Shown: positions 14,291 to 36,018 of the stretch, piece by piece | Numbering within the stretch: the stretch's first letter is position 1 | How the letters are laid out: the number at the start of each line of letters is the position of its first letter | Assembly: GCF_022012295.1 (NCBI RefSeq) | Contig: NZ_JAKLTN010000002.1 | Location: 1,178,001 to 1,242,000, forward strand | DNA: 64,000 nt | Direction: 5' to 3' | DNA from: Dechloromonas hankyongensis | Lineage (GTDB): Bacteria > Pseudomonadota > Gammaproteobacteria > Burkholderiales > Rhodocyclaceae | The notes under the pieces: model-generated | What the model was told of the DNA's origin: nothing | Databases searched by the model: none | What the model saw: only the letters and a program-made list of their open reading frames with translations | Made by a program: the position numbers and the translations under genes

Positions 14291-14827
14291 TCTGTTCTCC
14301 TCATTTACGGTTCAGTCGGCCTGTCAACCAGCCCGAACAAAATCTACAGCAATGACAAAAATAAGCCAACCAACGAGCCTGGAATATCGCCCATGCCAGC
14401 GAAGCGCTTGATTTGGCCGAAGTGTATGTAGTTATGCGAAAATCATGCATTCGCCCATCTGCTACTTATTGTGGGGCGACGGCAGCACCTCTAGGCCAGG
14501 GCCGGAGCATCTTGATGCGGATCACGAAATGGGTAACTGCGTATCCGAAATAGGAGACAACCGCGGAGTGCTGGTGATGGCCCAGTGGAACGCTGGCGTT
14601 GCGTTGAGTATCAACGAAGCCGATGCAGTTCCCTCCAACGCTAAGCATATCTGAGTATGAGGTACATGGCCTTGCTCTTGCAACGCGGTTGCCTCTCCCC
14701 ACAGACTCGAAGCTCTACAGATAGCGATAGCGGCGAGAGCATTTGCCTACTAGATAAACACCGCAGCAGCCGCTCGAGACCTCAATCAAGACTTTCTTTA
14801 TTGCAGATAGCGTTGCTTCCAATTCGC
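14291..14827. other. Intergenic region at the island edge, no supported gene
   Basis: About 540 bases between the FIST start and the ATP-grasp stop, with lower GC than the flanks. Bases 14291-14374 are shared with the decayed FIST copy at 16335-16671. Two short opposed frames (14445-14654 plus, 14466-14702 minus) have no SD, motif or recognisable family, so I do not call them. It may hold the FIST promoter, but no clear hexamers were found. Confidence 0.5.
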
Positions 14828-16100: not shown

Positions 16101-16305
16101 ACGATCCGGCCGGCTAGGGCGCACATGGCGGCGATGCGGCGCTTCAGGGTACGGGCATCCTGCCTTCGGCGATCATCCACTTCATCAGAGTGATATTCGA
16201 ACGCATGCACTCGACCATCGGCTCCTTGTTCAGAGCGACGGCACAAGCGGCGGCGGAACGCTCGGCGTCGGTATCGGACAGGTCGAAAGCCTGCTCGACC
16301 TTGAG
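16101..16305 (-). pseudogene. Aconitase B (acnB) internal fragment
   Basis: Bases 16101-16131 match intact acnB near 21862-21892, and 16132-16305 match 22388-22564, so this is an acnB piece with about 490 bases deleted inside. A further 4-base gap lies in the CATCCTG/CCTTCGG stretch. In protein terms it joins the DARTLKRRI region directly to [11 protein letters not shown]. It cannot encode a functional aconitase. The segment is in frame with the downstream ATP-grasp ORF. Confidence 0.8.
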
Positions 16306-16334: not shown

Positions 16335-16671
16335 GGCGCGCGGAAGCCGAGAAAAATCATCCCGACAGGCTGTGCCCCTAGTAACCGGCCGGCCCGATTT
16401 TGCTGCGGTGGTGCAGCCGACAACCATGACAATGGCAAAGCGGCGATTCATTTTCCTCGGCAAGGGAGTGGAGATCGCAGTTGCTGTAGCAGAAAACCAG
16501 CACAACCACCGTCTCCGGCTGCGTCACCTCAGCATAGAACCCGAAACGACCTCTTCGGCGCTCTTTGCTACGGAATGCCCGGGACGAATTTGCCCCACTG
16601 CGCCCATTCGACTCTCCATCGGCAATAGACACAAAATCTACAGAAATGATAAAAACAAGCCAACAAACATG
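16335..16671 (-). pseudogene. FIST gene 5'-end fragment
   Basis: A degenerate copy of bases about 14012-14374, covering the first 90 or so codons of the FIST gene and its upstream leader (shared strings include AAAATCTACAG and the AAGCCAAC region). On the minus strand it has frame changes and a stop near the VTRG position, so the frame is not continuous. It abuts the acnB fragment, which ends at 16305. Confidence 0.75.
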
Positions 16672-17047
16672 GCTGTAATGTCGCTCACGCCGACGATCAT
16701 AGTCAATCCAGGCATCGTGGCAATTGCATGTGCGGCAAAAAGCGAGAAAGTGCTTCGGCAGCTGCATCCAGATTATGGTCACCGTGCCGTAGCCGGTCAA
16801 TTTAACCATCGCAACATAGCAGATCAAACCAGATCACTCGCCCGTTCAATGCACCGGGTGGGACGCAGAGCCAAAAACTATGGCGCCCCCTTCCGATTGG
16901 ACTAGGAACCGATCCCTGACGCGTGTGGTCTTTCTATGGAAGTCTCGATTTTGTCGAAATTCGGTTTCCATAAGTACCCGGGACGAAAATCAAAATGTGT
17001 TACGCCTTGAACTGCCCACTTCGGCAGTTCCGGACGCGGAGTCGTTA
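16672..17047. promoter_or_regulatory. Leader region of the secreted DNRLRE/lyase-like gene
   Basis: About 375 bases with no convincing gene. It must hold the promoter for the gene starting at 17048, since everything upstream is on the other strand or decayed. A GGAG SD lies 6 bases before that ATG. No unambiguous -35/-10 pair was found. Confidence 0.35.
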
Positions 17048-19723: not shown

Positions 19724-19763
19724 ATCCAGCCGTCACGCATACCGTTCCCCGATCCCGCAAAAA

Positions 19764-19791
19764 AGCCCCGGCCGGTTTCCCGACTGGGGCT
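19764..19791. terminator. Terminator copied from the acnB 3' end
   Basis: AGCCCC (19764-19769) pairs with GGGGCT (19786-19791), flanked by A-run and T-run, so it can act in both directions. It is a diverged copy of the dbpA/acnB terminator at 21666-21701 and travelled with the acnB 3' fragment. It now lies 41 bases after the secreted protein's stop. Confidence 0.7.
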
Positions 19792-19830
19792 TTTGGCGAA
19801 CTACACGCAGTACGCTTCGCTTGTCGCGAA

Positions 19831-19975
19831 TTACATCTTTACGGTCGCCGCGACTTCGACGAAGTCCTGGATCTTGTCGAAGTTCATCTAGAGATAGACT
19901 TCGGCCGCCTTGGCGTTCACCAGCTTGATCTGCTCCATATACTCCAGCACCGTGACGATGCGGCCGGCCAGAGCC
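19831..19975 (-). pseudogene. Aconitase B (acnB) 3'-end fragment
   Basis: A near-identical copy of the last 45 or so codons of acnB ([39 protein letters not shown]), including the stop. An in-frame TAG (complement of 19888-19890) replaces the Arg-Tyr codons before MNF. Similarity ends near 19975. At that point the other fragment (16101) resumes the acnB sequence, but it lies on the opposite side of the 891-residue gene. Confidence 0.8.
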
Positions 19976-21624: not shown

Positions 21625-21665
21625 GGTAGGTAATGAACTGAGTTTTATAAATTTGTAGCAATACA

Positions 21666-21701
21666 AAAAAGCCCCCGCCGGTTTCCCGACGGGGGCTTTT
21701 T
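21666..21701. terminator. Bidirectional terminator between dbpA and acnB
   Basis: GCCCCCG (21671-21677) pairs with CGGGGGC (21690-21696), with AAAAA before and TTTTT after, so it can serve both convergent genes. A diverged copy is at 19764-19791. Confidence 0.9.
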
Positions 21702-21739
21702 ACTGCGGTCGACGCTTAAAAAGCGTCGATTTTCGCAAC

Positions 21740-24328
21740 TTACATCTCGACCGTAGCCGCGACTTCGACGAAGTCCTGGATCTGATCGAAGTTCATGTAG
21801 CGATAGACTTCGGCCGCCTTGGCATTCACCAGCTTGATCTGCTCCATGTACTCTTCCTTGCTCACGATGCGGCCGGCCAGGGCGCACATGGCGGCCAGTT
21901 CGGCGGAACCGAGGTACACCTGGGTGTCGATACCGAGGCGGTTCGGGAAGTTGCGGGTGGAGGTGGAGATCGCGGTAGAGCCCTTACGGATCTGTGCCTG
22001 GTTGCCCATGCACAGCGAGCAGCCCGGCATTTCCATACGGGCGCCGGACTTGCCGAGGACGCCGTAGTAGCCTTCTTCGGTCAGGATCAGCGCATCCATC
22101 TTGGTCGGCGGAGCGATCCACAGGCGGGTCGGGATGTCCGACTTGCCTTCGAGGACCTTGCCGGCGGCACGGAAGTGGCCGATGTTGGTCATGCAGGAGC
22201 CGATGAAGACTTCGTCGATCTTGGCGCCGGCGACTTCGGACAGGACCTTGACGTCGTCCGGATCGTTCGGGCAGGCCAGGATCGGCTCGGTGACTTCGGC
22301 CAGATCGATTTCGATGACCGCGGCGTACTGGGCGTTGGCGTCAGCCTTGAGCAGCGTGCCGTTGGCGATCCAGTCTTCCATGGCGTTGATGCGGCGCTTC
22401 AGGGTGCGGGCATCCTGGTAGCCTTCGGCGATCATCCACTTCATCAGCGTGATGTTCGAACGCATGTACTCGACCATCGGCTCCTTGTTCAGGGCGACGG
22501 CACAGGCAGCGGCGGAACGCTCGGCGGCAGCGTCGGACAGCTCGAAAGCCTGTTCGACCTTGAGGTTCGGCAGACCTTCGATTTCCAGGATGCGGCCGGA
22601 GAAGACGTTCTTCTTGCCCTTCTTCTCGACGGTCAGCAGACCGGCTTTGATGGCGTACAACGGAATGGCATTGACCAGGTCACGCAGCGTGATGCCCGGT
22701 TGCATTTCGCCCTTGAAGCGGACGAGCACCGATTCCGGCATGTCCAGCGGCATGACGCCGGTGGCGGCGGCAAAGGCGACCAGGCCAGAACCGGCCGGGA
22801 AGGAGATGCCGATCGGGAAGCGGGTGTGCGAGTCGCCGCCGGTGCCGACGGTATCCGGCAGCAGCAGGCGGTTCAGCCAGGAGTGGATGACGCCGTCGCC
22901 CGGACGCAGCGCAACGCCGCCACGGGTGCTGATGAAGGACGGCAGTTCGCGGTGCATCTTGACGTCGACCAGCTTCGGATAGGCGGCGGTGTGGCAGAAG
23001 GACTGCATGACCAGGTCGGCGGAGAAGCCGAGGCAGGCCAGATCCTTCAGTTCGTCGCGGGTCATCGGGCCGGTGGTGTCTTGCGAACCGACGGTGGTCA
23101 TCTTGGGCTCGCAGTAGGTGCCCGGCAGAATGCCGGTCACGCCGCAGGCCTTGCCGACCATCTTCTGGGCCAGCGAGTAGCCCTTGCCGTCGTCGGCCGG
23201 GTTCTGCGGCAGGCGGAACAGGGTGGACGGGGCCAGGCCCAGCGCCTCACGCGCCTTGGCGGTCAGGCCGCGGCCGATGATCAGCGGAATACGGCCGCCG
23301 GCGCGAACTTCGTCGAGAATGACCAGGGTCTTCAGTTGCGATTCGGCGATCGTCGTACCGTTCTTGGTGGCGGTGACCTTGCCGGAGACGCCGTCGACCT
23401 TCAGTTCGATCTCGTCGCCCATGTCCATCTGGCCGGCGTCGATTTCGATCGGCAGAGCGCCGGCATCTTCCATCGTGTTGAAGAAGATCGGGGCGATCTT
23501 GGAACCCAGGCAGACGCCGCCGAAACGCTTGTTCGGGACGAACGGGATGTCTTCGCCGGTAAACCACAGCACCGAGTTGGTGGCGGACTTGCGGGAAGAA
23601 CCGGTACCGACCACGTCACCGACGTAGGCGATCAGGTTGCCCTTGGCAGCCAGCTTCTCCAGTTGCTTGATCGGGCCGCGCGAACCGGCTTCGTCGGCTT
23701 CGATACCCGGACGCGGGTTCTTCAGCATGGCCAGCGCGTGCAGCGGGATGTCCGGGCGCGACCAGGCATCCGGCGCCGGCGACAGGTCGTCGGTGTTGGT
23801 TTCGCCGGTGACCTTGAAGACGGTCAGCTTCTGCGAAGCCGGGACTTCCGGACGCGAGGTGAACCACTCGGCGTCGGCCCAGGACTGCATGACGGCCTTG
23901 GCATTGGCGTTGCCGCCCTTGGCCAGTTCGGCGACGTCGTGGAAGTAATCGAAAACCAGCAGGGTCTTCTTCAGGCCTTCGGCGGCGACGGTGCCGCAGG
24001 TACCACAGGCCAGCAGGTCGATCAGCGGCTTGACGTTGTAACCGCCGAGCATGGTGCCGAGCAGTTCGGTAGCTTTTTCCTTGGAAATCAGCGCACAGGC
24101 TTCTTCACCCTTGGCGACCTTGGCCAGGAACTCGGCCTTGACCTTGGCAGCGTCGTCCACACCGGCCGGCACGCGGTAGGTGATCAGTTCGACCAGAGCG
24201 GCTTCTTCGCCAGCGGGAGGATTCTTCAGCAGGGCCACCAGTTCGGTGGTCTGTTGCTTGGACAGGGGCAGCGGGGGGATACCGAGGGCTGCACGCTCTG
24301 CAACGTGGGCGCGATAGGCTTCAAGCAC
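21740..24328 (-). CDS. acnB: Bifunctional aconitate hydratase 2 / 2-methylisocitrate dehydratase
   Basis: An 862-residue AcnB, close to the E. coli length of 865. It isomerises citrate to isocitrate in the TCA cycle and can hydrate 2-methyl-cis-aconitate. The N-terminal HEAT-like domain ([21 protein letters not shown]) is followed by the swivel domain ([20 protein letters not shown]) and the catalytic core. The three [4Fe-4S] cysteines are visible in [12 protein letters not shown] and [10 protein letters not shown]. The start is GTG at 24328 with AAAGGAAG upstream; the frame extends to 24430 without support. Two decayed fragments of this gene lie in the 16-20 kb island. Confidence 0.95.
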
Positions 24329-24492
24329 GGCGACTTCCTTTCGTAAAGGGTTGCTCTGGGAAACGAATATTTTACGACAATGGCGGCGGCCGAATGGTTC
24401 GGCTTTCAGCGTCCCGAGGCCGGCTCGCAAGTCTTATATATTATATGTTATCTCGCCGCATTTGCCAGAGCCTGATGTGCACTTAAGTAGCA

Positions 24493-24517
24493 GCTTTGCT
24501 CAAAACTTGAGCAAAGC
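24493..24517. repeat. Perfect 11-bp inverted repeat upstream of acnB
   Basis: GCTTTGCTCAA (24493-24503) and TTGAGCAAAGC (24507-24517) are exact complements separated by AAC. There is no T-run on either side, so it is not a standard terminator. It may be an operator or an RNA hairpin in the acnB/ThDP-gene intergenic region. Confidence 0.6.
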
Positions 24518-24563
24518 AGACAAAGTCCTTGTGAGACAAAGGATTGCAGCACTTGCCCAGGGC

Positions 24564-24598
24564 TTATCCACAGACTTACCCCATCAAAACGGGGATAA
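24564..24598. repeat. DnaA-box palindromic element, copy 1
   Basis: TTATCCACA (24564-24572), an exact match to the E. coli DnaA-box consensus, continues as TTATCCACAGACTTACCC and faces CGGGGATAA (24590-24598), so TTATCC and GGATAA form an inverted pair. The same element occurs at 35825 and 35954. The whole gap 24329-24864 contains no other supported gene. Confidence 0.7.
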
Positions 24599-24864
24599 AG
24601 AACGTTTATTCGCCCCTTGGCGACAGGCGTTTGCAGCCTTTCCCGCCACGCTACCGCCCCGGGAAAAACGCTTATTTCTTATGCTTCCCTCTCCTGCGCA
24701 GGCGGTAAAGCCCCCTCATCGCGGCCCTGGAGGCAACTTCGACAAATTCGCCGAAATTTGACAAATGCGTGAAATAACTCACGATGAATATGACGAAAGT
24801 CGTAGATAGTGCTCCCCTCGTATCAGATGCACCACTTAAGAACCAACAAAACAAGGGGCCTCAG

Positions 24865-26733
24865 ATGAACAGCACACGCATTGCACTTGCCTACGATTAC
24901 GAGGCAGCCGACACGGAAATCGAAACCCTGCCGGCAGAAAACGAAACCCAAGTTGCCGACCTGATCGTTTCCTACCTGGAACAAATGGGCATCGAATACG
25001 TTTTCGGCGTTCCCGGCGGCGCTATCGAGCCGCTTTACAACGCCCTGGCGCGCAGCAGCCGACGCGGCGGCCCGCGCCCCATCGTCGCCCGCCATGAAGC
25101 CGGCGCCGCCTTCATGGCCGACGGCTATGCCCGCGAAACCGGCAAGATCGGCGTCTGCTGTGCCACCTCCGGCCCCGGCGCGACCAATCTGATCACCGGC
25201 GTCGCCTGCGCCTTCGACAACGGCATCCCGATGCTGGTCATCACCGGCCAGCCGTCGCTCCCCTCCTTCGGTAAGCGTGCCCTGCAGGAATCGGCCTGTA
25301 CCGGCGTCAACACGCTGGGCATGTTCCGCCACTGCACCCGCTACAACTCGCTGATCTCGCACCCCGAGCAGATCGAGTCGAAACTGATCACCGCCCTGCA
25401 ACGGGCCGTGCGCGCGCCGCGCGGGCCGGTGCACCTGACCATCCCGCTGGACATCATGAAAAGCCCCAGCCCGGTCAGCAAGCCCTCCTACGACATCGCC
25501 GACAAGCTCCGCCCGACCTCACTGCTCGATGCCGACGCCACCGACCAGCTGGTCGACCTGCTCCAGCAGTCGACCAATGTCCGCCTGCTGATCGGCGGCT
25601 GGTGCGGCGAAGCCATCGGCTCGATCCTGCAGCTGGCGGTCCTGCGCGACATTCCTTTCGTCACCACCCCCGACGGCAAGGGCCTGGTCAGCCCCTACCA
25701 TCCGCTGTTCCGGGGCGTTTTCGGCTTTGCCGGCCATCCGTCGGCCAGCGCCCTGCTCAACGACGACAGCGTCGACCTGATCCTCGCCGTCGGCACCAGC
25801 ATGAACGAATGGACCAGCAGCGGCTGGAGCGACTCCCTGCTCAACAGCAAGCTGGTGCACATCGACGAATCGGCCGAACACCTGGCCCGCTCGCCGATGG
25901 CCCGGCTGCACGTGCGCGGCCGCCTGCTCAGCATTTTCGACCGGCTGATCGAACGCAGCCACAAAACGCGCGAAAGCAGCGACTCCGAATACCAGCGCCA
26001 CCGCAACAGCCGCGAAACGCCGCTGCTCGTCACCAGCAACGAAAGCATGCTGGCCGAACCGGAGAAATACACCAGCATGGCCAGCCCCATCACGCCGCAA
26101 CGCCTGATGTACGACCTGGGCCGACTGTTTCCGCCGAGCACGCGCTTTCTCGCCGACGCGGGCAACAGCGTCGCGTGGTCCACCCACTATCTGAGCCCGG
26201 CCGACCGTCGGATCGGCGAGCGCCGCTTGAGCGGCGGCGGTCGCCGACGCGACAACGGTCGCCGCCAGACCGACGCCGGCTGGCTGCGCCTGACCATGGA
26301 CTTCGCCCCGATGGGCTGGGCCATCGGCGGCGCCGTCGGCACCGCGGCCGGCAACCCGAACGTGCCGGTGGTCTGCATCACCGGCGACGGCAGCCTGATG
26401 ATGAACGGCCAGGAAATTTCGGTCGCCGTCGCCGAAGGACTGACCGTAATCTTCGTCATTCTCAACGACCAGGCGCTGGGCATGGTCAAGCACGGCCAGC
26501 GCCTGGCCGGCGCCGAGCAGATCGGTTTCCAGCTGCCGACTACCGACTTCGCCGCCATGGCCCGCGCCATGGGCGCCGACGGCTATACGGTCCATTCGCC
26601 GGAGGACATGGCCGAACTGGACATCGACGCCATTTGCCGGAAAAAGGGGCCGACCCTGATCGACGTCTATATCGACGGCGAGGAAGTCCCGCCGATGAAT
26701 CTGCGCATGCAGATTCTGGGTACCGAACTCTAG
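24865..26733 (+). CDS. Thiamine-diphosphate-dependent enzyme (acetolactate synthase-like)
   Basis: A 622-residue protein of the ThDP/acetohydroxyacid synthase superfamily. The N-terminal Pyr domain has YVFGVPGGAIEPLYNAL and the ThDP-activating Glu in VARHEAGAAFMADGYAR. The middle domain and the C-terminal PP domain follow, the latter with the ThDP-Mg motif GDGSLMMNGQEIS through VIFVILND. An Arg-rich hydrophilic insertion (about residues 448-470; RRIGERRLSGGGRRR) is unusual. AAGGGG before the ATG at 24865 decides the start; the frame is open from 24784. It heads an operon with two citrate-synthase-like genes, so classic valine synthesis is not the obvious role. Substrate unknown. Confidence 0.8.
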   Translation: MNSTRIALAYDYEAADTEIETLPAENETQVADLIVSYLEQMGIEYVFGVPGGAIEPLYNALARSSRRGGPRPIVARHEAGAAFMADGYARETGKIGVCCATSGPGATNLITGVACAFDNGIPMLVITGQPSLPSFGKRALQESACTGVNTLGMFRHCTRYNSLISHPEQIESKLITALQRAVRAPRGPVHLTIPLDIMKSPSPVSKPSYDIADKLRPTSLLDADATDQLVDLLQQSTNVRLLIGGWCGEAIGSILQLAVLRDIPFVTTPDGKGLVSPYHPLFRGVFGFAGHPSASALLNDDSVDLILAVGTSMNEWTSSGWSDSLLNSKLVHIDESAEHLARSPMARLHVRGRLLSIFDRLIERSHKTRESSDSEYQRHRNSRETPLLVTSNESMLAEPEKYTSMASPITPQRLMYDLGRLFPPSTRFLADAGNSVAWSTHYLSPADRRIGERRLSGGGRRRDNGRRQTDAGWLRLTMDFAPMGWAIGGAVGTAAGNPNVPVVCITGDGSLMMNGQEISVAVAEGLTVIFVILNDQALGMVKHGQRLAGAEQIGFQLPTTDFAAMARAMGADGYTVHSPEDMAELDIDAICRKKGPTLIDVYIDGEEVPPMNLRMQILGTEL

Positions 26734-26791
26734 CCCGCAGATGGCAACTAGACCCCGACAAAATCGCCCGCGCAAAAACGAAAATCCGAAT

Positions 26792-27580
26792 ATGCAAACC
26801 ATAAGCACCAAGATCTGGCACGAAGAGGCTGAACCGGGTAATCCTTTCGCTGCCCGAATCGCCCGCTGCGGGGGCTATGACGTCTACGGCGAAATGCTCG
26901 GCCGGGCGCGCTGGAGCGACATGCTGTTCCTGCTGTTTACCGGCCAGGCGCCGAGCGCGGCCCAGACCAAACTGCTCGAATCGCTGGCTGTGGCCCTGGC
27001 CAATCCCGGTCCACGCGACGCCAGCGTCCATGCCGCAATGTGCGGCGGCATTGGCGGCTCGACCAGCGCTTCCTGCCTGACGGCAGCCCTTGCGGTCGGC
27101 GCCGGACTGAACGGAGGCAGCAGGGAGGTATTCCTGGCCATGGAAAATTGGCAGCAATGCGGTTGCGACCTCGACAAGTGGGCCGGCCGGCTCGCCGAGA
27201 AACCTGACGAACTTGCCTCGATCTGGCCGACCGCCGAACACGCCGCCGGCTTCGACCCCCACGCCGTCGAAACCGGCCTGCCAATACGCCAGACCCTAGC
27301 CGTGCTGGTGGCATGCAGCCCGGGAGAACGGCTCCCCTGGCTCGCCGCACAGCGCCCGGACCTGGAAGCACTGGCTGGCCACCCACTCGCCATATCGGGA
27401 GTGGCCGCAGCAGCCATGGCCGATCTCGGCCTGACGTCCGAACAAGGTGAAATGCTTTACCTGTTGCTCCGCTTGCCCGGCGCTGCGGCCCATGCCCTGG
27501 AGCAAAAGCAGATCAGCCACCGGAACTTCCCGTTTTTCACGCTGGAGTTGGCTGAAGAAGCAGGCGGAGAGAAATCATGA
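26792..27580 (+). CDS. Citrate synthase-like protein A (citryl-CoA lyase-like, degenerate)
   Basis: A 262-residue, half-size citrate-synthase-fold protein, in the length range of citryl-CoA lyases. Recognisable stretches are CGGYDVYGEMLGRARWSDMLF, VALANPGPRDASVHAAM, GGSTSASCLTAALAVGAG and HPLAISGVAAAAMADLGL. Where citrate synthases have HGGAN the protein reads NGGSRE, and the catalytic Asp position (PNVD) reads PLAIS, so canonical catalysis is doubtful. Start uncertain: ATG at 26792 (MQTISTKIWHEEAEPGNPF) or 26741; neither has a clear SD. Its last four bases overlap the next ATG (ATGA), indicating translational coupling. Confidence 0.7.
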   Translation: MQTISTKIWHEEAEPGNPFAARIARCGGYDVYGEMLGRARWSDMLFLLFTGQAPSAAQTKLLESLAVALANPGPRDASVHAAMCGGIGGSTSASCLTAALAVGAGLNGGSREVFLAMENWQQCGCDLDKWAGRLAEKPDELASIWPTAEHAAGFDPHAVETGLPIRQTLAVLVACSPGERLPWLAAQRPDLEALAGHPLAISGVAAAAMADLGLTSEQGEMLYLLLRLPGAAAHALEQKQISHRNFPFFTLELAEEAGGEKS

Positions 27581-28389
27581 ACGGACCGGAATATCTTGCG
27601 CAAAAGGCCGGCAAACTGCAAACCACCATGGGCGGTTTCTTTCCCGGCAGCCATGTGGTGTTTCGCGGCCAGACGCTGCACGACGGCCTCAAGGACATGG
27701 ACTGGATGGCCTTGTACCTCTTCGGCATCTGCGGACGTCGTTTCACGCCGGCAGAACTGGAACTGGCCAATGCCTTGTGGACCTACACCAGTTATCCCGA
27801 TGCCCGCATCTGGAACAACCGGGTCGCCGCGCTTTCCGGCAGCGCGCGCAGCACGGGCAATCTGGGTCTTTCTGCCGCCCTGGCCATTTCCGAAGCCCAT
27901 ATTTATGGCCGCGGCAACGAAGTGCAGGCCATCACCTTCTTCATCGCCACGCAAAAGCGGCTCGCTGCCGGTGGTGGCTTGGCTGATTGCCTGCAAGAAG
28001 AAATGAAGGCCCATCGGCGCATTGCCGGCTATGGCCGGCCGCTGGTCAATGCCGACGAGCGCATTGCCCCGATCATGGCCCGGGCTGCTGAACTCGGACT
28101 CGACCAAGGCCCGCATATCCGGCTCGCATTCGCCATCGAACGTTTCCTGCTCGACAGCGGCCGTAATCTGCGCATGAATTACGGCGCCGTGGTTTCCGCC
28201 TTCGGCGCCGATCTCAGCCTGTCGCCGGAAGAATTTTATCTCTTCATGTTCCCGTCCTTCCTCGCCGGCATGCCGCCCTGTTTCCTGGAAGCCAAGCTTT
28301 CCGCCGAAGGGAGTTTGTTCCCGCTACGCTGTGCCGACATTGCCTATGATGGCCCCCCGGCCAAGGCATGGCCATCGGAATTCAGGTAG
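27577..28389 (+). CDS. Citrate synthase-like protein B (citryl-CoA lyase-like, degenerate)
   Basis: A 270-residue citrate-synthase-fold protein, paralogous in fold to its upstream neighbour. DARIWNNRVAALSGSARST, SAALAISEAHIYGRGNEV, IAGYGRPLVNADERI and LRMNYGAVVSAFGADL align with citrate synthase blocks. The three catalytic positions read Tyr (HGGAN), Arg (GFGH) and Asn (PNVD). It overlaps gene A by four bases, so the two probably form a heteromer or act together with the ThDP enzyme. The reaction cannot be assigned. Confidence 0.7.
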   Translation: MNGPEYLAQKAGKLQTTMGGFFPGSHVVFRGQTLHDGLKDMDWMALYLFGICGRRFTPAELELANALWTYTSYPDARIWNNRVAALSGSARSTGNLGLSAALAISEAHIYGRGNEVQAITFFIATQKRLAAGGGLADCLQEEMKAHRRIAGYGRPLVNADERIAPIMARAAELGLDQGPHIRLAFAIERFLLDSGRNLRMNYGAVVSAFGADLSLSPEEFYLFMFPSFLAGMPPCFLEAKLSAEGSLFPLRCADIAYDGPPAKAWPSEFR

Positions 28390-28469
28390 AGAGAACACTG
28401 CCCGTGCCCCCACGATGCGTAACCCGCCGGAACATTATGAACGCAACATATTATAAAAAGGCGCTCGGA

Positions 28470-28498
28470 TTGCCAGCTGCGGGTCTTTCCTCTACATT
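28470..28498 (+). promoter_or_regulatory. Putative sigma-70 promoter of the TonB receptor operon
   Basis: TTGCCA (28470-28475), a 17-base spacer and TACATT (28493-28498) lie upstream of the receptor gene. The expected start of transcription near 28505 leaves the GGGGG SD and the ATG at 28532 in the leader. Confidence 0.4.
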
Positions 28499-28531
28499 CC
28501 CCGCAACAAAAAAATGAGGGGGAAATCCACA

Positions 28532-30556
28532 ATGGGTTCACTACGCATCCTGGTTGGTTTGCTGGCCGCGAGTTGGGCCGGTGCTTCCACAGCCCAGTCG
28601 GCCATGGAAGAAGAAGACCTGGCCTTGGCCTATGGTGACAAGAACTTTGTCAGCATCGCCACCGGCACTCGGCAACTGATCAGGAAAGCTCCATCGACAG
28701 CGACCGTCATCACCGCTGAAGACATCGCCAACGTTGGCGCCAAGACACTGACCGAAGTACTTGAAACCGTTCCCGGCCTGCATATTTCCCGCAACACGCT
28801 GCAAAACAACTACATGCCTACCTACGGCATGCGCGGCATCCTCACCGGCACCTCACCGCACATTCTGATGCTGGTCAACGGCATTCCGAGAACCAGCGTT
28901 TACCTCGGCAACCCGGATCAGACCTTTGTCGAATTGCCGGTCGAAAATATTGCCCGCATCGAAGTCATTCGCGGTCCCGGTTCGGCGGTCTACGGCGCCG
29001 ATGCATTTGCCGGCACGATCAACATCATCACCAAAACCGCCGAAGATATAGACGGCACCTCGATCGGTGTCCGTGCCGGCTCTTTCAACAGTTGGGACAG
29101 CTGGTTCCAGCACGGTGGAAAGATTGGCGGACTGGAGATCGCTTCCTATCTGAAGGTCGGCAGCACGGATGGTTCGCGGCGCAATGTGCGCACCGATCTG
29201 GTCGGCAACAGCGGCCCGCTGAACAACGGCTATGAAAGCGTGGATGCCCAAATCGATCTCGGTTACGACAAATTCCGCTGGCGAGCCGGTTATACATTAC
29301 GCGACGACGTCGGCACCGGTGTCGGCATTGCCGGTGCGCTTGACCCGATCGGGCGAGTTCGCAGCGAGCGCATCGCCAGCGACCTTTCCTGGACCGACGA
29401 GAATTTTGCCCGCGACCTCAGCCTGACCCTGCAAGGGTCTTACATGCAACTGGCCACCGAAGTGACCACACCGCTGAGAATCGTCCCGGGCGGCATCTTC
29501 CCTGGATTTCCCGACGGCATGATCGGCGCCCCGGACAACTGGGAGCGCCAGGCCCGCCTGTCCGCCACCAGCGTCTATTCGGGATTCGTCAATCATCGGA
29601 TTCGTTTTGGCTTCGGTCACGACCAACTGGAAATCTACAGGACCAGTGAAACCAAGAATTTCACCCAGATTCCCGTACTCACTCCGCTACCGATGTATTC
29701 AGCGAGCGGTGATAACCTGTTCCTCTCACCCCACAAGCGCAAAGTCAGCTACCTCTACGCCCAGGACGAATGGAACTTCGCCCGCGACTGGACCCTGACC
29801 GGCGGTCTGCGCCACGACAACTATTCCGATTTCGGCAGCACCACCAATCCGCGCCTGGCCCTGGTCTGGGAGGCCCGCCAGGACCTGACGGCCAAACTGA
29901 TGTATGGCACGGCGTTCCGCGCCCCTTCCTTCATCGAGCAGTATGCGACGGGGAATCCGGTTGCCCTTGGCAATCCGGCCTTGATGCCCGAAAAAATCAA
30001 GACGCTCGAAGCGGCTGTGGCCTGGCAAGTCCGACACGACTTGCTGACCAGTTTGAGCATTTTCCACCATGAAATTTCCGATATCATCAATCAGTCGGGC
30101 GTCACGTATCAAAATACCGGCAAGCAAAAAGGCAATGGCGGCGAATTCGAAGTCCTGTGGGATGCTTCAAATGCCCTGCGCCTCACCGGGCACTACGCCT
30201 ATCAGCGCAATATCGACCAGACGACGCGCCAGGATGCCGGCTACGCGCCGCACCACCATCTCTACACCCGCGCCGACTGGCGCGTGTACTCGGACTGGCG
30301 CCTAAGCGGCCAGGTCAATTATGTCGCCGACCGGGAACGGCCTGCCGGCGACACCCGGCCGCAGGTTCCGGACTACACCTCGGTAGACCTGACCTTGCGC
30401 ACCAGCCCGCAGAAACGCGGATGGGATTTTTCCGGCTCGGTCTTCAACCTGTTCAATGCCGATATCCGCGAGCCGACCAAGGCTGCCTCCGGCATCGTCT
30501 ACGATCTCCCGATGCCCCGCCGAACCTTCTGGCTTCAGGCTCGTTACAGCCTATAA
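28532..30556 (+). CDS. TonB-dependent outer-membrane receptor
   Basis: A 674-residue protein with a signal peptide (SLRILVGLLAASWAGASTAQ), an N-terminal plug domain (about residues 45-155; STATVITAEDIANVGAKTLTEVLETVPG, RIEVIRGPGSAVYGADAFAGTINIIT) and a C-terminal beta-barrel ending in WLQARYSL. The barrel includes the TonB-box-distal signature YGTAFRAPSFIEQY. The ligand cannot be told from sequence; BtuB/siderophore-type receptors share this plan. The start at 28532 has AGGGGG upstream; the ATG at 28514 does not. The next gene begins 7 bases after its stop. Confidence 0.92.
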   Translation: MGSLRILVGLLAASWAGASTAQSAMEEEDLALAYGDKNFVSIATGTRQLIRKAPSTATVITAEDIANVGAKTLTEVLETVPGLHISRNTLQNNYMPTYGMRGILTGTSPHILMLVNGIPRTSVYLGNPDQTFVELPVENIARIEVIRGPGSAVYGADAFAGTINIITKTAEDIDGTSIGVRAGSFNSWDSWFQHGGKIGGLEIASYLKVGSTDGSRRNVRTDLVGNSGPLNNGYESVDAQIDLGYDKFRWRAGYTLRDDVGTGVGIAGALDPIGRVRSERIASDLSWTDENFARDLSLTLQGSYMQLATEVTTPLRIVPGGIFPGFPDGMIGAPDNWERQARLSATSVYSGFVNHRIRFGFGHDQLEIYRTSETKNFTQIPVLTPLPMYSASGDNLFLSPHKRKVSYLYAQDEWNFARDWTLTGGLRHDNYSDFGSTTNPRLALVWEARQDLTAKLMYGTAFRAPSFIEQYATGNPVALGNPALMPEKIKTLEAAVAWQVRHDLLTSLSIFHHEISDIINQSGVTYQNTGKQKGNGGEFEVLWDASNALRLTGHYAYQRNIDQTTRQDAGYAPHHHLYTRADWRVYSDWRLSGQVNYVADRERPAGDTRPQVPDYTSVDLTLRTSPQKRGWDFSGSVFNLFNADIREPTKAASGIVYDLPMPRRTFWLQARYSL

Positions 30557-30563
30557 TGCGCCA

Positions 30564-31706
30564 ATGACATTGCGCTTTCTTCGCCTCCTTCTGACTCTCC
30601 TGCTGGTCGCCTGCACCGTCCAGGCGGAAGCAGGCGTCACGCGCATCGCCGTGATTTTTGCCGAGGCCGACGATCCCAGCCCGGCCAGTTTTACCGGCAT
30701 GCTCGGCGGCATGGAAAATACGCCGGGCGTCGAAATCATCCGGCTGACCCTGAGGGATCTCGAAGAGCCCCGCCTCAGCCAGTTGCTGAACAACGCGCAA
30801 CGTGGCGGCCCTATCCGGCTGGCCGCGGCGGGTGGCAACATCGGGCCCATCGCCGTGTTCTACCCGGATATCGGCGAACCCTATCGCAGCGTTTTTTCCA
30901 AGATCATCGAAGGGATAGAGGAAAGCGCCCAGGCCAAGGTCAGCAGTTATGCGGTCGGCAGCAATTTCAACGCCCAGGCGGTTTCCGGCGAATTGAAGCG
31001 GCAGGATGTCCGCGTGGTCATCGCGCTGGGCCGCAACGGCCTGAAAGCCGCCAGCGCGCTCGACAAGGAATTCGGCGTCATCGCCGGCGGCGTGGTTTCC
31101 GTCCCCGACAGCGAAGTCCGCACCGGGGCCATTCTCAGCCTGGCACCTGATCCAGCCTTGCTGTTCGCACGCCTGAAGGCACTGTCGCCGAAAACCCAGC
31201 GCGTCTTCGTCGTCTTCGAACCGCGCCAGAACGCCTGGCTGATAAAGCTCGCCAAAGATGCCGCACGCGGCCAAGGCATCGAACTGGTCGCCCAGGAAGC
31301 CGGCGACCTGAAGAGCGCCCTGGCGATCTACCAGAACATCTTCGCGACCGCCGATGCCAAGCGCGACGCCCTTTGGCTGCCGCAAGACAGCGCCACAGTG
31401 GACGACTCGCTGGTCCTGCCGCTGGTTCTGCAGGAATCGTGGTCCAAGGGCATCCCGGTATTTTCCAGCAACGTCTCGCATGTCAAGCGCGGCGCCCTGT
31501 TTGCCCTTTACCCCAACAACGTTGAACTGGGCCGCAACCTGGCCACTTCCGCCCTCGGCATGGCCAGCGGCAGTCCGGTGGCGCGTGGAGTGCTGCCGCT
31601 GCGCGACGTCTTGACCGCATTCAATACGCGGACGGCCAGCCATCTCGGCTTGACCCCGTCAAAGGCCCAGCAACAGGGCTTCGATCTCCTTTTCCCGGAG
31701 CAATAA
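30564..31706 (+). CDS. Periplasmic ABC-type substrate-binding-like protein
   Basis: A 380-residue protein with a signal peptide (MTLRFLRLLLTLLLVACTVQAEA; the VACT could be a weak lipobox). The fold signs are those of TrpX-like ABC substrate-binding proteins: VRVVIALGRNGLKAAS, AILSLAPDPALLFARLKALSP and VFSSNVSHVKRGALFALYPNNVELGR. No ABC permease or ATPase follows; instead a giant sensor kinase begins 7 bases downstream. I infer that it is a ligand-sensing partner for the kinase rather than a transporter subunit. Confidence 0.78.
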   Translation: MTLRFLRLLLTLLLVACTVQAEAGVTRIAVIFAEADDPSPASFTGMLGGMENTPGVEIIRLTLRDLEEPRLSQLLNNAQRGGPIRLAAAGGNIGPIAVFYPDIGEPYRSVFSKIIEGIEESAQAKVSSYAVGSNFNAQAVSGELKRQDVRVVIALGRNGLKAASALDKEFGVIAGGVVSVPDSEVRTGAILSLAPDPALLFARLKALSPKTQRVFVVFEPRQNAWLIKLAKDAARGQGIELVAQEAGDLKSALAIYQNIFATADAKRDALWLPQDSATVDDSLVLPLVLQESWSKGIPVFSSNVSHVKRGALFALYPNNVELGRNLATSALGMASGSPVARGVLPLRDVLTAFNTRTASHLGLTPSKAQQQGFDLLFPEQ

Positions 31707-31713
31707 GCCCGCT

Positions 31714-34700
31714 ATGGCTTGGCTGTCTGGTTTGTTGCGGCGCATCAGGAAAATCACCTTCCGCAGCCAGCTGGCCATTCTGTTCGCGGTCGGCGTCCTC
31801 TGCGCTTCGCTGCTGGCCGCCCTGATCACATCCTGGCAAGGCAGCCGCCAGCTGTATGACGGCAAGCTGGATGACGGCCTGCGCATCACCCGCAACCTTG
31901 CTTCGCAAAGCCGACTGGCCCTGGCTTTCGGCTCGACGGAAAACGTTTCGGAAGCGCTGGGCGCCACCTCGGCCTTCCCCGACGTGACGCGGATCGAAAT
32001 CCGCCACGCCGACGGTCGCATCCTGCTCGAAAAGGGCAAACCCATCGTCGATGAAGCCTTGCATACACCGCGGCACAATGGGCGCGATCCCTACCTGGAC
32101 GCCGAAAGCACTGCCGGCTGGCGCTTCGTTGCGCCGGTGTGGTCGGTTTCCGGCCCCGACACCCAGTTCGAAACGACGGAGCGCAAGGACATCCTGCTCG
32201 GCTTCGTCATCATCGAACAAAGCAAGGCGACGCTGAAAACGCTGGTGAAGGAGGTTTTCATCATCAATTTCGCGGCCGGGATAGCCTTTGCCGCGCTGTT
32301 CGTACTCGCCCTCCGTGTGCTCGCCCGGCGCCTGACCAGGCCGCTGGCCAATCTGTCGGACACCATGGCGCGCGCCGAAAAGGGAGAAGTCGGCCTGCGC
32401 GCCGATCCTTCAGGCCCGCAGGACCTGGCCGACATGGCCCACGCCTTCAATAGCATGATGGAGGCCCTGGAACAGCGCGAGCAGGAGTTGCGCACCGCCC
32501 GCGACAGCGCCCTGCGCTTCGCCAAGCTGAAGGCCGATTTCGCGGCCATGATCAGCCACGAAATCCGCACGCCGCTGAACGGCGTCATCGGCACCCTCAA
32601 CATGATGAAGATGAGCCGGATGAATCGCGAACAGCAGGAATTGCTGGGCCTGGCCTGGGACTCGTCGCAATACTTGCTCGAACTGATCAACAACATTCTA
32701 GATTTCTCGCGCCTGGAAGCCGGCCGGATGGAAGTCGATGCCTGCGATTTCCAGATGCGGCCGCTGGTCGATGGCGTGATGAACATGTTCCACACGCTGG
32801 CCGCCCAGAAGAATATAGCCCTAGCCGATTGCGTGGCGGCCGACGTGCCGCCGACCCTGACCGGCGACCCGGCCCGCATCCGCCAGGTTTTGATCAACCT
32901 GCTGGGCAACGCGCTCAAATTCACCGAGCGGGGTTCGGTCACGCTGACCGTCGAGTGCATCGACGAAGGCCGCCAGTTGCGCTTCAGCGTCCGCGATACC
33001 GGCATCGGTATCGCCAAGGAATTGCAATCGGTCATTTTCGATTCGTTCACCCAGGCCGACACATCGACGACCCGGCGCTATGGCGGCAGCGGCCTCGGGC
33101 TTTCCATCTGCAAGCAAATCGTTCGCCTGCTCGGCGGCGAAATCGGCGTCGACGGGACACCGGGCGAAGGCAGCAATTTCTGGTTCACCACGCCCTGCGT
33201 CAGCAGTTCGTCGGTTGCTACGCCAACGCCGCAACCGGACAACGACAAGCCGGTCAACCGCAGCGGCCACATCCTGATCGCCGAGGACAATGCCACCAAT
33301 CAACTGGTTGCGGCCGGCATGCTGCGCATGCTCGGCTGCACCTACGGCATTGCCAAGAACGGCATCGAAGCCGTCGCCGCTTGGCGTGAGGGCGGCTGGG
33401 ACCTGATCCTGATGGATTGCTCGATGCCCGAAATGGACGGCTTCCAGGCCACCGAGGCGATCCGCAGCCAGGAAGCGGCCGGCGCCCGCCGCACGCCGAT
33501 CATCGCCATGACCGCCAATACCCTGCCGGCCGACATCGAGCACTGCAAGGCCGCCGGCATGGACGATCATCTGCCCAAACCGCTGACCCTGGACACGCTA
33601 GCTACCCGTCTCGAGCATTGGCTCAACTGGCACGCGGACCTCGTGCCGCCGGCCGACACGGCGGACGCCCCGGCCAACGGCAACGCGCCGCTCGACACCG
33701 CGGTCCTCAAACGCCTGCGGGAGATTCTCGGCACTTCGGTCAGCGAGGCCATCCGCCCCTTCCTTGAAGACGTTCCGAACTATCTGGTCGAACTGGAAAA
33801 CGGCATTGCCGAAGGCAATGCAACGACCCTGCGCAACGTTTCCCATGTCATCAAGGGCGCCGCCAGCAACCTGGGCGCGGTCGCCATGGCCGGCGTCGCC
33901 CGCGAGATGGAACTACGGGCCGAGGCCGGCGTGCTGAGCGAAGCGAGCGAACTGCTGCTGCGCCTGCGCACCGAATTCGCCGTCATCGAACCCGCTCTGA
34001 TGTCCGAGCTGGACGAACCGTCGCCGGCACTGCCGAAACTGCGCGAGGACGCACCAGTCGTGCTGGTTGCCGACGACGACCGCAGCACCCGTTCGGCCCT
34101 GCGCCACGCCTTGTACCGCAGCGGCTTCCGGGTCGCCGAGGCGGGCGACGGCAGCGAAGTGCTCGACTGGCTGGAATACAACACCGCCGACGCCATCCTG
34201 ATGGATGCGCTGATGCCGGTGATGGACGGTTTCGACGCCTGCGCCGCGCTGAAGCGCCATCCCCGCTGGAAGGACATCCCCATCCTGATGATTACCGCCC
34301 TCGAGGACCGGCAATCGATCGAGCGCGCCTTCGAAGCCGGCGCCAGCGATTTCATCCCCAAGCCCATCCATCTGTCGGTGGTCAACCAGCGGGTCCGCCG
34401 CATCATCGAAGCCACCCGGGCCGAGCGCCACGTCCGCCATCTGGCCTACAACGACACGCTGACCGGCCTGCCCAACCGCCTGCTGTTCATGGACTACCTG
34501 ACCCGCGCCATCGAGGATGCGGCGGCCAATAACAGCATGCTGGGCATACTGTTCCTCGATCTCGACCGCTTCAAGTTCATCAACGACACCCTCGGTCACG
34601 AGGTGGGGGACAAGTTGCTGGCCACCATGGCGCAGCGCCTGAAGGGCTGCGTGCGGACCGACGACTGTGTGGCCCGCCTGGGCGGCGACGAATTCACCGT

Positions 34701-35754
34701 GCTGCTCGACGCCCTGCCCAATTCCGGCGTTGCCGCCAGCGTCGCCCAGAACATCTGCCGCACGGTGTCGGCACCGCTGGTTATCGATGGCCAGGAAATC
34801 GTCGTCACGGCCAGCGTCGGCATCGCGCTCTACCCGCAGGACGGGCCGGACATCAACCGCCTGCTGCGCCATGCCGATACCGCAATGTATCGCGCCAAGA
34901 GCAGCGGCAGCGGTTTCTGTTATTACGAAGCGGCGATGGAATCCGCCATCTCCGGCCGGCTCAAGATGGAAAACGACCTGCGGCGGGCGCTGGAACGCGA
35001 CGAAATCACCGTCTTCTATCAACCGGTGGTCGACACCGGCAGCGGCAAGGTCACCGGCGTCGAGGCGCTGGTCCGCTGGCTGCACCCAGAACGCGGCGTG
35101 GTGTCGCCCGCCGATTTCATTCCAATTGCCGAAGAAACCGGACTCATCCTGCCCCTCGGCGAACGGGTCCTGCGCAGCGCCTGCCTGCAGGCCAAGACCT
35201 GGCTGGACAACGGCATCGCCGACCTCTACGTGGCGATCAACCTGTCATCCAAGCAACTGGAACAGCCCGACCTGCGCAACATCATTTTCAGCGCCCTGAA
35301 CGAAAGCGGCCTGCCCGCCACGTCGCTGGTCCTGGAAATCACCGAAAGCGTCATGATGGCGCGCGCCGCCGAAAGCATCGACCTGCTGCGCGAATTGCGC
35401 AGCCTGGGCATCCACATCTCGATCGACGATTTCGGCACCGGCTATTCCTCGCTGTCCTACCTGAAGCACCTGCCGGCCAATATCCTGAAAATCGACCGCT
35501 CCTTCATCCAGGACATCCCGCAGGACGAAGACGCGGTCGCCATCGTCAAGGGCATCACGGCGCTGGCGCATAGCCTGCGCATGAAAGTCGTCGCCGAGGG
35601 CGTCGAAACCGTCGCCCAGCAGGAAGCCATGGCGTCGTTGCACTGCGATTACCTGCAGGGCTACCTGTTCTCCAAACCGCTGCCGGCCGAATTGATCGAG
35701 ACCCAGCTGCATTCCGCCAAGCGCAAGAAACGCCAGGCCAAGAAGCCGCACTAA
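31714..35754 (+). CDS. Hybrid histidine kinase with HPt, two receivers, GGDEF and EAL domains
   Basis: A 1346-residue inner-membrane protein. In order: TM1 (about 18-42), a CHASE8-like periplasmic domain (about 45-180), TM2 (about 185-205), HAMP (about 205-258), HisKA with His282 in SHEIRTP, HATPase (about 385-500), a receiver with phospho-acceptor Asp near 568 (LILMDCSMPEMDG), HPt with His711 (SHVIKG), a second receiver with Asp831, GGDEF (intact GGDEF at 990-994) and EAL (EAL at 1117-1119; ITESVMM, DDFGTGYSS). A complete phosphorelay and both c-di-GMP synthesis and breakdown motifs lie in one chain. It follows the receptor and binding-protein genes with 7-base gaps. Confidence 0.92.
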   Translation: MAWLSGLLRRIRKITFRSQLAILFAVGVLCASLLAALITSWQGSRQLYDGKLDDGLRITRNLASQSRLALAFGSTENVSEALGATSAFPDVTRIEIRHADGRILLEKGKPIVDEALHTPRHNGRDPYLDAESTAGWRFVAPVWSVSGPDTQFETTERKDILLGFVIIEQSKATLKTLVKEVFIINFAAGIAFAALFVLALRVLARRLTRPLANLSDTMARAEKGEVGLRADPSGPQDLADMAHAFNSMMEALEQREQELRTARDSALRFAKLKADFAAMISHEIRTPLNGVIGTLNMMKMSRMNREQQELLGLAWDSSQYLLELINNILDFSRLEAGRMEVDACDFQMRPLVDGVMNMFHTLAAQKNIALADCVAADVPPTLTGDPARIRQVLINLLGNALKFTERGSVTLTVECIDEGRQLRFSVRDTGIGIAKELQSVIFDSFTQADTSTTRRYGGSGLGLSICKQIVRLLGGEIGVDGTPGEGSNFWFTTPCVSSSSVATPTPQPDNDKPVNRSGHILIAEDNATNQLVAAGMLRMLGCTYGIAKNGIEAVAAWREGGWDLILMDCSMPEMDGFQATEAIRSQEAAGARRTPIIAMTANTLPADIEHCKAAGMDDHLPKPLTLDTLATRLEHWLNWHADLVPPADTADAPANGNAPLDTAVLKRLREILGTSVSEAIRPFLEDVPNYLVELENGIAEGNATTLRNVSHVIKGAASNLGAVAMAGVAREMELRAEAGVLSEASELLLRLRTEFAVIEPALMSELDEPSPALPKLREDAPVVLVADDDRSTRSALRHALYRSGFRVAEAGDGSEVLDWLEYNTADAILMDALMPVMDGFDACAALKRHPRWKDIPILMITALEDRQSIERAFEAGASDFIPKPIHLSVVNQRVRRIIEATRAERHVRHLAYNDTLTGLPNRLLFMDYLTRAIEDAAANNSMLGILFLDLDRFKFINDTLGHEVGDKLLATMAQRLKGCVRTDDCVARLGGDEFTVLLDALPNSGVAASVAQNICRTVSAPLVIDGQEIVVTASVGIALYPQDGPDINRLLRHADTAMYRAKSSGSGFCYYEAAMESAISGRLKMENDLRRALERDEITVFYQPVVDTGSGKVTGVEALVRWLHPERGVVSPADFIPIAEETGLILPLGERVLRSACLQAKTWLDNGIADLYVAINLSSKQLEQPDLRNIIFSALNESGLPATSLVLEITESVMMARAAESIDLLRELRSLGIHISIDDFGTGYSSLSYLKHLPANILKIDRSFIQDIPQDEDAVAIVKGITALAHSLRMKVVAEGVETVAQQEAMASLHCDYLQGYLFSKPLPAELIETQLHSAKRKKRQAKKPH

Positions 35755-35824
35755 GCCCTGCCCATTTTTTAGGCAACCCCAGATTCCCCTTCCGGCTCAG
35801 CGACTTGGGCAATCTGTCCCGAGC

Positions 35825-35858
35825 TTATCCACAGACTTACCCGGCAAAACGGGGATAA
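35825..35858. repeat. DnaA-box palindromic element, copy 2
   Basis: TTATCCACA at 35825-35833, followed by GACTTACCC and then CGGGGATAA (35850-35858). It lies in the first of two tandem repeats of about 100 bases (roughly 35778-35877 and 35906-36004) behind the hybrid kinase gene. Confidence 0.75.
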
Positions 35859-35953
35859 AAATTGTTTATTTATCGCCAGCCCGATCTGCACAAATTTTAA
35901 GCAAAGGACTCGAATCCCTGTCGGCTCAATGACTTGGCAAAACAGCCCAGAGC

Positions 35954-35988
35954 TTATCCACAGACTTACCCAGTACAAACGGGGATAA
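35954..35988. repeat. DnaA-box palindromic element, copy 3
   Basis: TTATCCACA at 35954-35962, with GACTTACCC and CGGGGATAA (35980-35988). It is offset 129 bases from copy 2 and its flanks also match (TCGGCTCAATGACTTGG against CCGGCTCAGCGACTTGG), so this is a tandem duplication of the element plus context. Confidence 0.75.
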
Positions 35989-36018
35989 ACAACCTTTATT
36001 TCACCGGGCAACCCGTGA

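What the first reader, a model, noticed from the sequence alone, without database searches (positions are those of the whole stretch)
24865..28389. ThDP enzyme coupled to two degenerate citrate-synthase-like proteins
Seen: three adjacent same-strand genes. The ThDP-dependent enzyme of 622 residues has an intact GDG-to-N cofactor motif. The next two genes (262 and 270 residues) have citrate synthase folds at citryl-CoA-lyase size and overlap by ATGA. Known: canonical citrate synthases use His (HGGAN), His (GFGH) and Asp (PNVD). In protein A the first and third positions read N and a non-acidic residue; in protein B the three positions read Y, R and N. Inference: the pair may form a heteromer with new chemistry or be a CoA-binding scaffold, fed by a ThDP-derived acyl group. 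I know of no named pathway with this trio.
Basis: partly seen in the sequence, partly recalled or inferred. Interest (0 to 1): 0.75.

Follow-up and report, generated by a model that had tools for sequence, protein, structure and literature searches.

The report
Unknown small-molecule synthesis-and-sensing gene block
Three adjacent bacterial genes, a thiamine-dependent enzyme and two citrate-synthase-shaped proteins that have lost the usual catalytic residues, recur together in many environmental bacteria beside genes for uptake and sensing, which suggests an undescribed way of making and detecting a small molecule.

Summary
The trio is real: T (ThDP enzyme, 622 aa), A (262 aa), B (270 aa). A and B take the citryl-CoA-lyase fold (6hxp top hit for both) without its His/His/Asp triad. 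A is degenerate but may keep one His at a shifted place.

T-A-B with these recurs in 87 fetched loci; 20 arbitrary segments had no TonB or SBP match. In 369 genomes B and SBP co-occur in 37 (5.4 expected), and T tracks both. One relative fuses T and A. In two loci a ketosynthase III-like gene or a methyltransferase stands near T instead of A-B.

Best reading: a unit that makes a small molecule, imports it and senses it, with likely c-di-GMP output. Product, A-B heteromer, B's chemistry and signal role are inferred. Ten literature searches found no description.

The parts
24865..26733 (+). T: ThDP enzyme, 622 aa, acetolactate-synthase-like, all three TPP domains, with a variable Arg-rich insert
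   Evidence: Pfam; below NCBIfam cut-offs; motifs; insert
26792..27580 (+). A: citryl-CoA-lyase-fold protein, 262 aa, triad degenerate
27577..28389 (+). B: citryl-CoA-lyase-fold protein, 270 aa, triad replaced, strongly conserved site
28514..30556 (+). TonB-dependent receptor with plug, 680 aa
   Evidence: Pfam; matches in 40 of 47 named and 33 of 40 unnamed loci, 0 of 20 control segments
30558..31706 (+). SBP: ABC_sub_bind (PF04392) periplasmic binding protein, 382 aa in the frame used
   Evidence: Pfam (33.2 bits, cut-off 25.9); profile co-occurrence
31714..35754 (+). HK: hybrid histidine kinase, HAMP-HisKA-HATPase, two receiver domains, Hpt, GGDEF, EAL, 1346 aa
   Evidence: Pfam; matches in 34 of 47 and 34 of 40 loci but also 9 of 20 control segments

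Best explanation
The block 24865-35754 makes a small molecule and detects it or a close relative. T decarboxylates a 2-oxo acid and joins the ThDP-bound acyl anion to a second substrate, giving an acyloin-like core. A and B, diverged paralogues of citryl-CoA lyase, act as a heteromeric partner: A mainly structural, B with a rebuilt pocket around Tyr110, Arg154, Arg162 and Asn201 that binds an acyl-CoA or polar acid and modifies or channels T's product. SDR, P450, sulfotransferase, methyltransferase or ketosynthase III genes in other species vary the product. The compound enters by the TonB receptor, is bound by SBP in the periplasm and reported to HK, whose receiver, GGDEF and EAL domains set c-di-GMP. 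Shown: genes, folds, conservation, co-occurrence, one T-A fusion. Inferred: everything about the product, the A-B heteromer, B's chemistry, and that the sensed ligand is the product.
For: T-A-B plus TonB, SBP and HK recur against controls of 0, 0 and 9 of 20. Profiles in 369 genomes: B 44, SBP 45, T 46; overlaps 37, 38, 40 against 5.4-5.6 expected; by genus 26, 26, 28. T-A fusion. Biosynthetic accessory genes: SDR 13, P450 7, sulfotransferase 4 of 47 named loci. L174 and L172: T with TonB, SBP and HK but a ketosynthase III-like gene or a methyltransferase and no A or B. Apart from the six core genes no gene cluster is in more than 9 of 47 loci, so no common importer or exporter was seen. Two of 11 separately fetched T loci have a Pfam-confirmed FIST sensory protein near T, one a GGDEF-EAL protein and a chemotaxis receptor.
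Against: No product, binding or activity data. HK is common in control segments (9 of 20). 7 of 44 B genomes lack SBP and 8 of 45 SBP genomes lack B. Of five loci outside the class with T-A-B, only 2 show a TonB match and 1 an SBP match (some contigs are short). Several T genes without A-B lie among unrelated genes (L186, L189, L192, L193). Accessory enzymes are in a minority of loci and in 3 (SDR) or 0 of 40 unnamed ones. Shared ancestry inflates the p values.
Confidence: 0.52

Rival explanations
1. Chemosensing and catabolism: the TonB receptor imports an environmental compound, SBP and HK sense it, and T-A-B breaks it down.
For: Receptor, binding protein and kinase are equally expected of a nutrient sensor; ThDP enzymes and citryl-CoA-lyase-like proteins can run as lyases (general knowledge). 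SBP has a weak tryptophan-binding-protein match, far below cut-off.
Against: Sulfotransferase, methyltransferase and ketosynthase III-like genes fit synthesis better; no common inner-membrane importer cluster.
Confidence: 0.22
2. Metallophore: T-A-B makes a metal-binding compound that returns through the TonB receptor, with HK as regulator.
For: Biosynthetic genes beside a TonB receptor whose best family matches are heme, siderophore and B12 receptors, all below cut-off. Many named carriers are from iron-cycling genera (Gallionella, Sideroxydans, Geobacter).
Against: No common importer cluster; no Fur-box-like site with up to 3 mismatches in the window (weak test).
Confidence: 0.13
3. A and B are non-catalytic partners (pseudoenzymes) that hold or regulate T, and T alone makes the product.
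For: Triad missing in both; T-A fusion; T with TonB, SBP and HK but without A-B exists (L172, L174).
Against: B has many invariant polar residues beyond what a scaffold needs (R77, R154, D160, E161, R162, N201).
Confidence: 0.3
4. A and B are ordinary citryl-CoA lyases of central metabolism.
For: Closest family models are citryl-CoA lyase; aconitase B is the neighbour at 21740-24430 (named from its sequence and order, not by a family scan).
Against: Triad not met; 55.4 and 35.9 bits against cut-offs of 261 and 245; the genome has a full-length citrate synthase elsewhere; aconitase B is near the trio in 2 of 47 named and 0 of 40 unnamed loci.
Confidence: 0.03

Closest known systems
Citryl-CoA lyase (6hxp, Hydrogenobacter thermophilus; PRK06224 families) and the lyase module of ATP citrate lyase
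   Same: Fold and size of A and B
   Different: His/His/Asp triad absent; two diverged paralogues in tandem; tied to a ThDP enzyme and sensing genes
ThDP enzymes of the acetolactate synthase superfamily (TIGR00118; solved BbmA 8x3x, CsmA 8x3z)
   Same: All three TPP domains and the catalytic Glu and GDG...N
   Different: 283.5 bits against a cut-off of 538 for acetolactate synthase; own co-occurrence with SBP and B. What BbmA and CsmA make was not found
LuxPQ autoinducer-2 sensing (recalled)
   Same: Periplasmic binding protein beside a hybrid histidine kinase; HK matches LuxQ at 327.7 bits, below its cut-off of 1200
   Different: Binding-protein family PF04392, a TonB receptor, GGDEF and EAL output, other synthesis genes
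Siderophore gene clusters with TonB receptors (recalled)
   Same: Biosynthetic genes beside a TonB receptor
   Different: No common inner-membrane importer cluster found; no NRPS-type gene among the families tested

Membership tests
Citryl-CoA lyase / citrate synthase (A and B) | Fold | tested here: met
   Foldseek top hit 6hxp for both, E 3.8e-8 and 2.2e-9; profile match to 19 family sequences
Citryl-CoA lyase / citrate synthase (A and B) | His, His, Asp catalytic triad | tested here: not met
   B Tyr/Arg/Ala-Gly; A variable/none/Ser-Thr, with a possible shifted His150
Citryl-CoA lyase / citrate synthase (A and B) | Score above the curated family cut-off | tested here: not met
   A 55.4 of 261, B 35.9 of 245 bits; Pfam A 17.9 of 27, B none
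Citryl-CoA lyase / citrate synthase (A and B) | CoA binding and citryl-CoA cleavage | not testable with these tools
   needs assay
ThDP-dependent enzyme (T) | Three TPP domains, catalytic Glu, GDG...N | tested here: met
Acetolactate synthase proper (T) | Score above an equivalog cut-off | tested here: not met
   best 283.5 of 538.35 bits (25 of 58 families shown)
LuxPQ-like sensing | Periplasmic binding protein next to a histidine kinase | tested here: met
   30558-31706 and 31714-35754, families
LuxPQ-like sensing | Binding of a self-made signal | not testable with these tools
   needs ligand identification
Metallophore cluster | Inner-membrane importer, metal-dependent regulation | tested here: inconclusive
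   No recurring importer cluster (smaller clusters not all assigned); no Fur-like site with up to 3 mismatches

The most novel reading that the evidence does not exclude
A new class of bacterial chemical signalling: a ThDP enzyme with a heteromeric citrate-synthase-fold partner makes an autoinducer that re-enters by a dedicated TonB receptor and is read by a LuxPQ-like binding protein and histidine kinase that set c-di-GMP; in B the citrate synthase triad has become a fixed Tyr/Arg site with chemistry not known for this fold.
Probability: 0.3. Interest if true: 0.9.

Novelty: new variant of a known kind. Interest (0 to 1): 0.7.

Why it matters
If right, about one in eight sampled genomes of the class (44 of 369) carries an unrecognised synthesis-and-sensing system, with hits also in eight sampled genomes of the phylum outside the class and in named Geobacter and Desulfuromonadaceae records. 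Gallionella, Sideroxydans, Aquabacterium, Roseateles and Sulfuricella records are among the carriers. It offers a testable candidate signal tied to c-di-GMP in bacteria that are often hard to grow, and would add a function to the citrate synthase fold. The genes score below the curated models that resemble them, so automatic names for them would mislead.

Tried and rejected
Aconitase B as part of the unit: rejected, near the trio in 2 of 47 named and 0 of 40 unnamed loci. Ordinary citryl-CoA lyase: rejected. Plasmid carriage: no B match in PLSDB. Promoter and terminator scan of 24300-28700: counts near shuffle level. Fur box: none, a weak test. B against solved structures by sequence: no match. 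Literature: ten searches; I saw listings and starts of abstracts only (one search listed 10 of 19 papers, 12 of 32) and opened no paper; none of those listings describes the trio. What BbmA and CsmA do was not found.

Corrections: A was translated in a wrong frame, so its A results are void; one search repeats them. Control segments lie at round coordinates chosen by hand in 11 genomes: ten others with a B match and the window's own. Search thresholds differ: B 1e-5, SBP 1e-10, T 1e-100, so distant T genes are missed. Rows dropped: A and B under 200 aa and T under 450 aa before column counts; shorter than about 225 aa or over 88% alike before alignments A1 and A2 (A 83 to 70, B 87 to 78). In one search, 18 of 20 citrate-synthase-like loci gave a usable frame.

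Full report
Check of the observation. T has all three TPP domains and keeps the catalytic Glu and GDG...N. Against L032 and L033, dN/dS is 0.11 and 0.13 for T, 0.14 and 0.12 for A, 0.10 and 0.09 for B.

Fold and active site. Family models point weakly to citryl-CoA lyase, far below cut-off. Predicted structures are confident and both have 6hxp as best PDB match. A and B are homologous. In 19 citrate synthase/lyase sequences the triad is present in 18, with one exception, L119, at the first His and the Asp. In B the first two places read Tyr110 (77 of 79) and Arg154 (79 of 79); the Asp place reads Ala, Gly or another residue, and the invariant Asn201 pairs with the Asn of N-V-D. Two alignments place Ile109 at the first position instead. 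P74, R77, W79, G111, G151, D160, E161, R162 are among the 13 invariant columns of B. In A the first place drifts (His in 13 of 85), the third is mostly Ser or Thr, and the second is uncertain; His150 (71 of 85) lies close to it. So A looks degenerate, perhaps with one shifted His, and B looks rebuilt. No coordinates were available to settle this in space.

Setting. A TonB receptor, a PF04392 binding protein and a hybrid kinase with GGDEF and EAL follow on the same strand. A collection scan with B gave 47 named loci. Gene clusters most often present in them are T (43), A (39), TonB (37), HK (35), B (33) and SBP (25); next is an SDR (9). With stop-to-stop frames: T 44, A 47, B 47, TonB 40, SBP 27, HK 34 of 47 named loci; T 31, A 37, B 40, TonB 33, SBP 26, HK 34 of 40 unnamed loci. 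Loci differ in length and some end at contig ends; the two sets may share species. In 20 arbitrary 20-kb segments of 11 genomes the same search found T, A, B, TonB and SBP in 0 and HK in 9; HK is the weak link.

Profiles. In the same 369 genomes B is found in 44, SBP in 45 and T in 46. Overlaps: B-SBP 37, B-T 38, SBP-T 40, against 5.4, 5.5 and 5.6 expected (p 6.5e-36, 1.7e-37, 1.6e-41); by genus 26, 26 and 28 (p 4.4e-25, 9.5e-26, 6.9e-29). Against a strict rule: B without SBP 7, SBP without B 8, B without T 6, T without B 8, SBP without T 5, T without SBP 6. Shared ancestry makes these p values too small. In a wider sample 11 of 249 genomes matched the B profile, eight of them outside the class. 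Of six of the 11 fetched, the five from outside the class have T, A and B side by side, but a TonB match only in L199 and L202 and an SBP match only in L202; the sixth, L197, is a lone lyase-like gene.

Links. L091 has T and A fused in one 886-aa frame. Accessory genes: SDR 13, P450 7, sulfotransferase 4 of 47 named loci, SDR 3 and none of the others in 40 unnamed (families). In L174 T is followed by a 131-aa protein of no Pfam family, a ketosynthase III-like gene (its Cys, His and Asn read by eye), TonB, SBP and HK; in L172 by a methyltransferase, TonB, SBP and HK; neither has A or B. Among 11 T loci fetched because T lies apart from A-B or A-B is missing, L188 and L195 have a Pfam-confirmed FIST protein near T and L191 a GGDEF-EAL protein and a chemotaxis receptor; L189 and L193 lie beside what look by eye like 2-oxoglutarate dehydrogenase genes, and L186 and L192 beside no signalling gene found. 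The link of T to sensing genes outside the block is therefore partial.

Interpretation. Anabolic accessory genes, a condensing enzyme in place of A-B in one locus, a receptor and binding protein that track T and B, and the lack of a common importer favour a compound that is made and sensed over catabolism or metal uptake. The strength is moderate.

Novelty. Each part belongs to a known superfamily. The combination was not found in ten searches of the open-access library, which lacks most subscription papers, so it may be in print elsewhere.

Noticed in passing
window 24554-24610, 35815-35870, 35945-36000: A direct repeat of about 56 bases, 84-88% alike, holding TTATCCACA (like a DnaA box, recalled). 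These are the only three matches in the own genome at E 0.001 and they bracket the T-to-HK block; the three TTATCCACA sites are the only exact ones in the window. L033 has a 20-base match downstream of HK, L032 none.
   Followed up: partly
window 16124-16305 / 22379-22564; 19758-19974 / 21664-21883; 14038-14397 / 16357-16691: DNA stretches repeated at 90%, 82% and 74% identity; the first lies within the aconitase-B-like gene, the second overlaps its 3' end.
   Followed up: no
T, residues 438-483: A segment of 23 to 65 residues between two conserved positions, Arg-rich in the window, varies in length among 66 T sequences.
   Followed up: partly
L049 and L050: L049 carries two T-A-B sets in tandem; L050 carries a second T gene.
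   Followed up: no
G136 C1:3257642-3258289 and C1:3775504-3775680 (L089, L145): Two parts of a B gene lie about 0.5 Mb apart, with T and A beside the shorter part. Described only.
   Followed up: no
L141 (G034): T, B and TonB matches are each broken into pieces while A, SBP and HK remain, so the set may be decaying there. Described only.
   Followed up: no
L143:9372-18066: A different cluster with a citrate-synthase-like gene, acyl-CoA dehydrogenase domains, a luciferase-like monooxygenase, a ThDP enzyme, a NIPSNAP protein and a P450.
   Followed up: partly
L197:8992-11265 and L119: Lone citryl-CoA-lyase-like genes that keep GYGH but read Ser or Asn at the Asp place.
   Followed up: no
L167, L168 (G232, G213): The SBP genes closest to the window's outside its own set (50% and 58% identity) lie with HK but without T, A or B in the fetched stretch.
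   Followed up: partly
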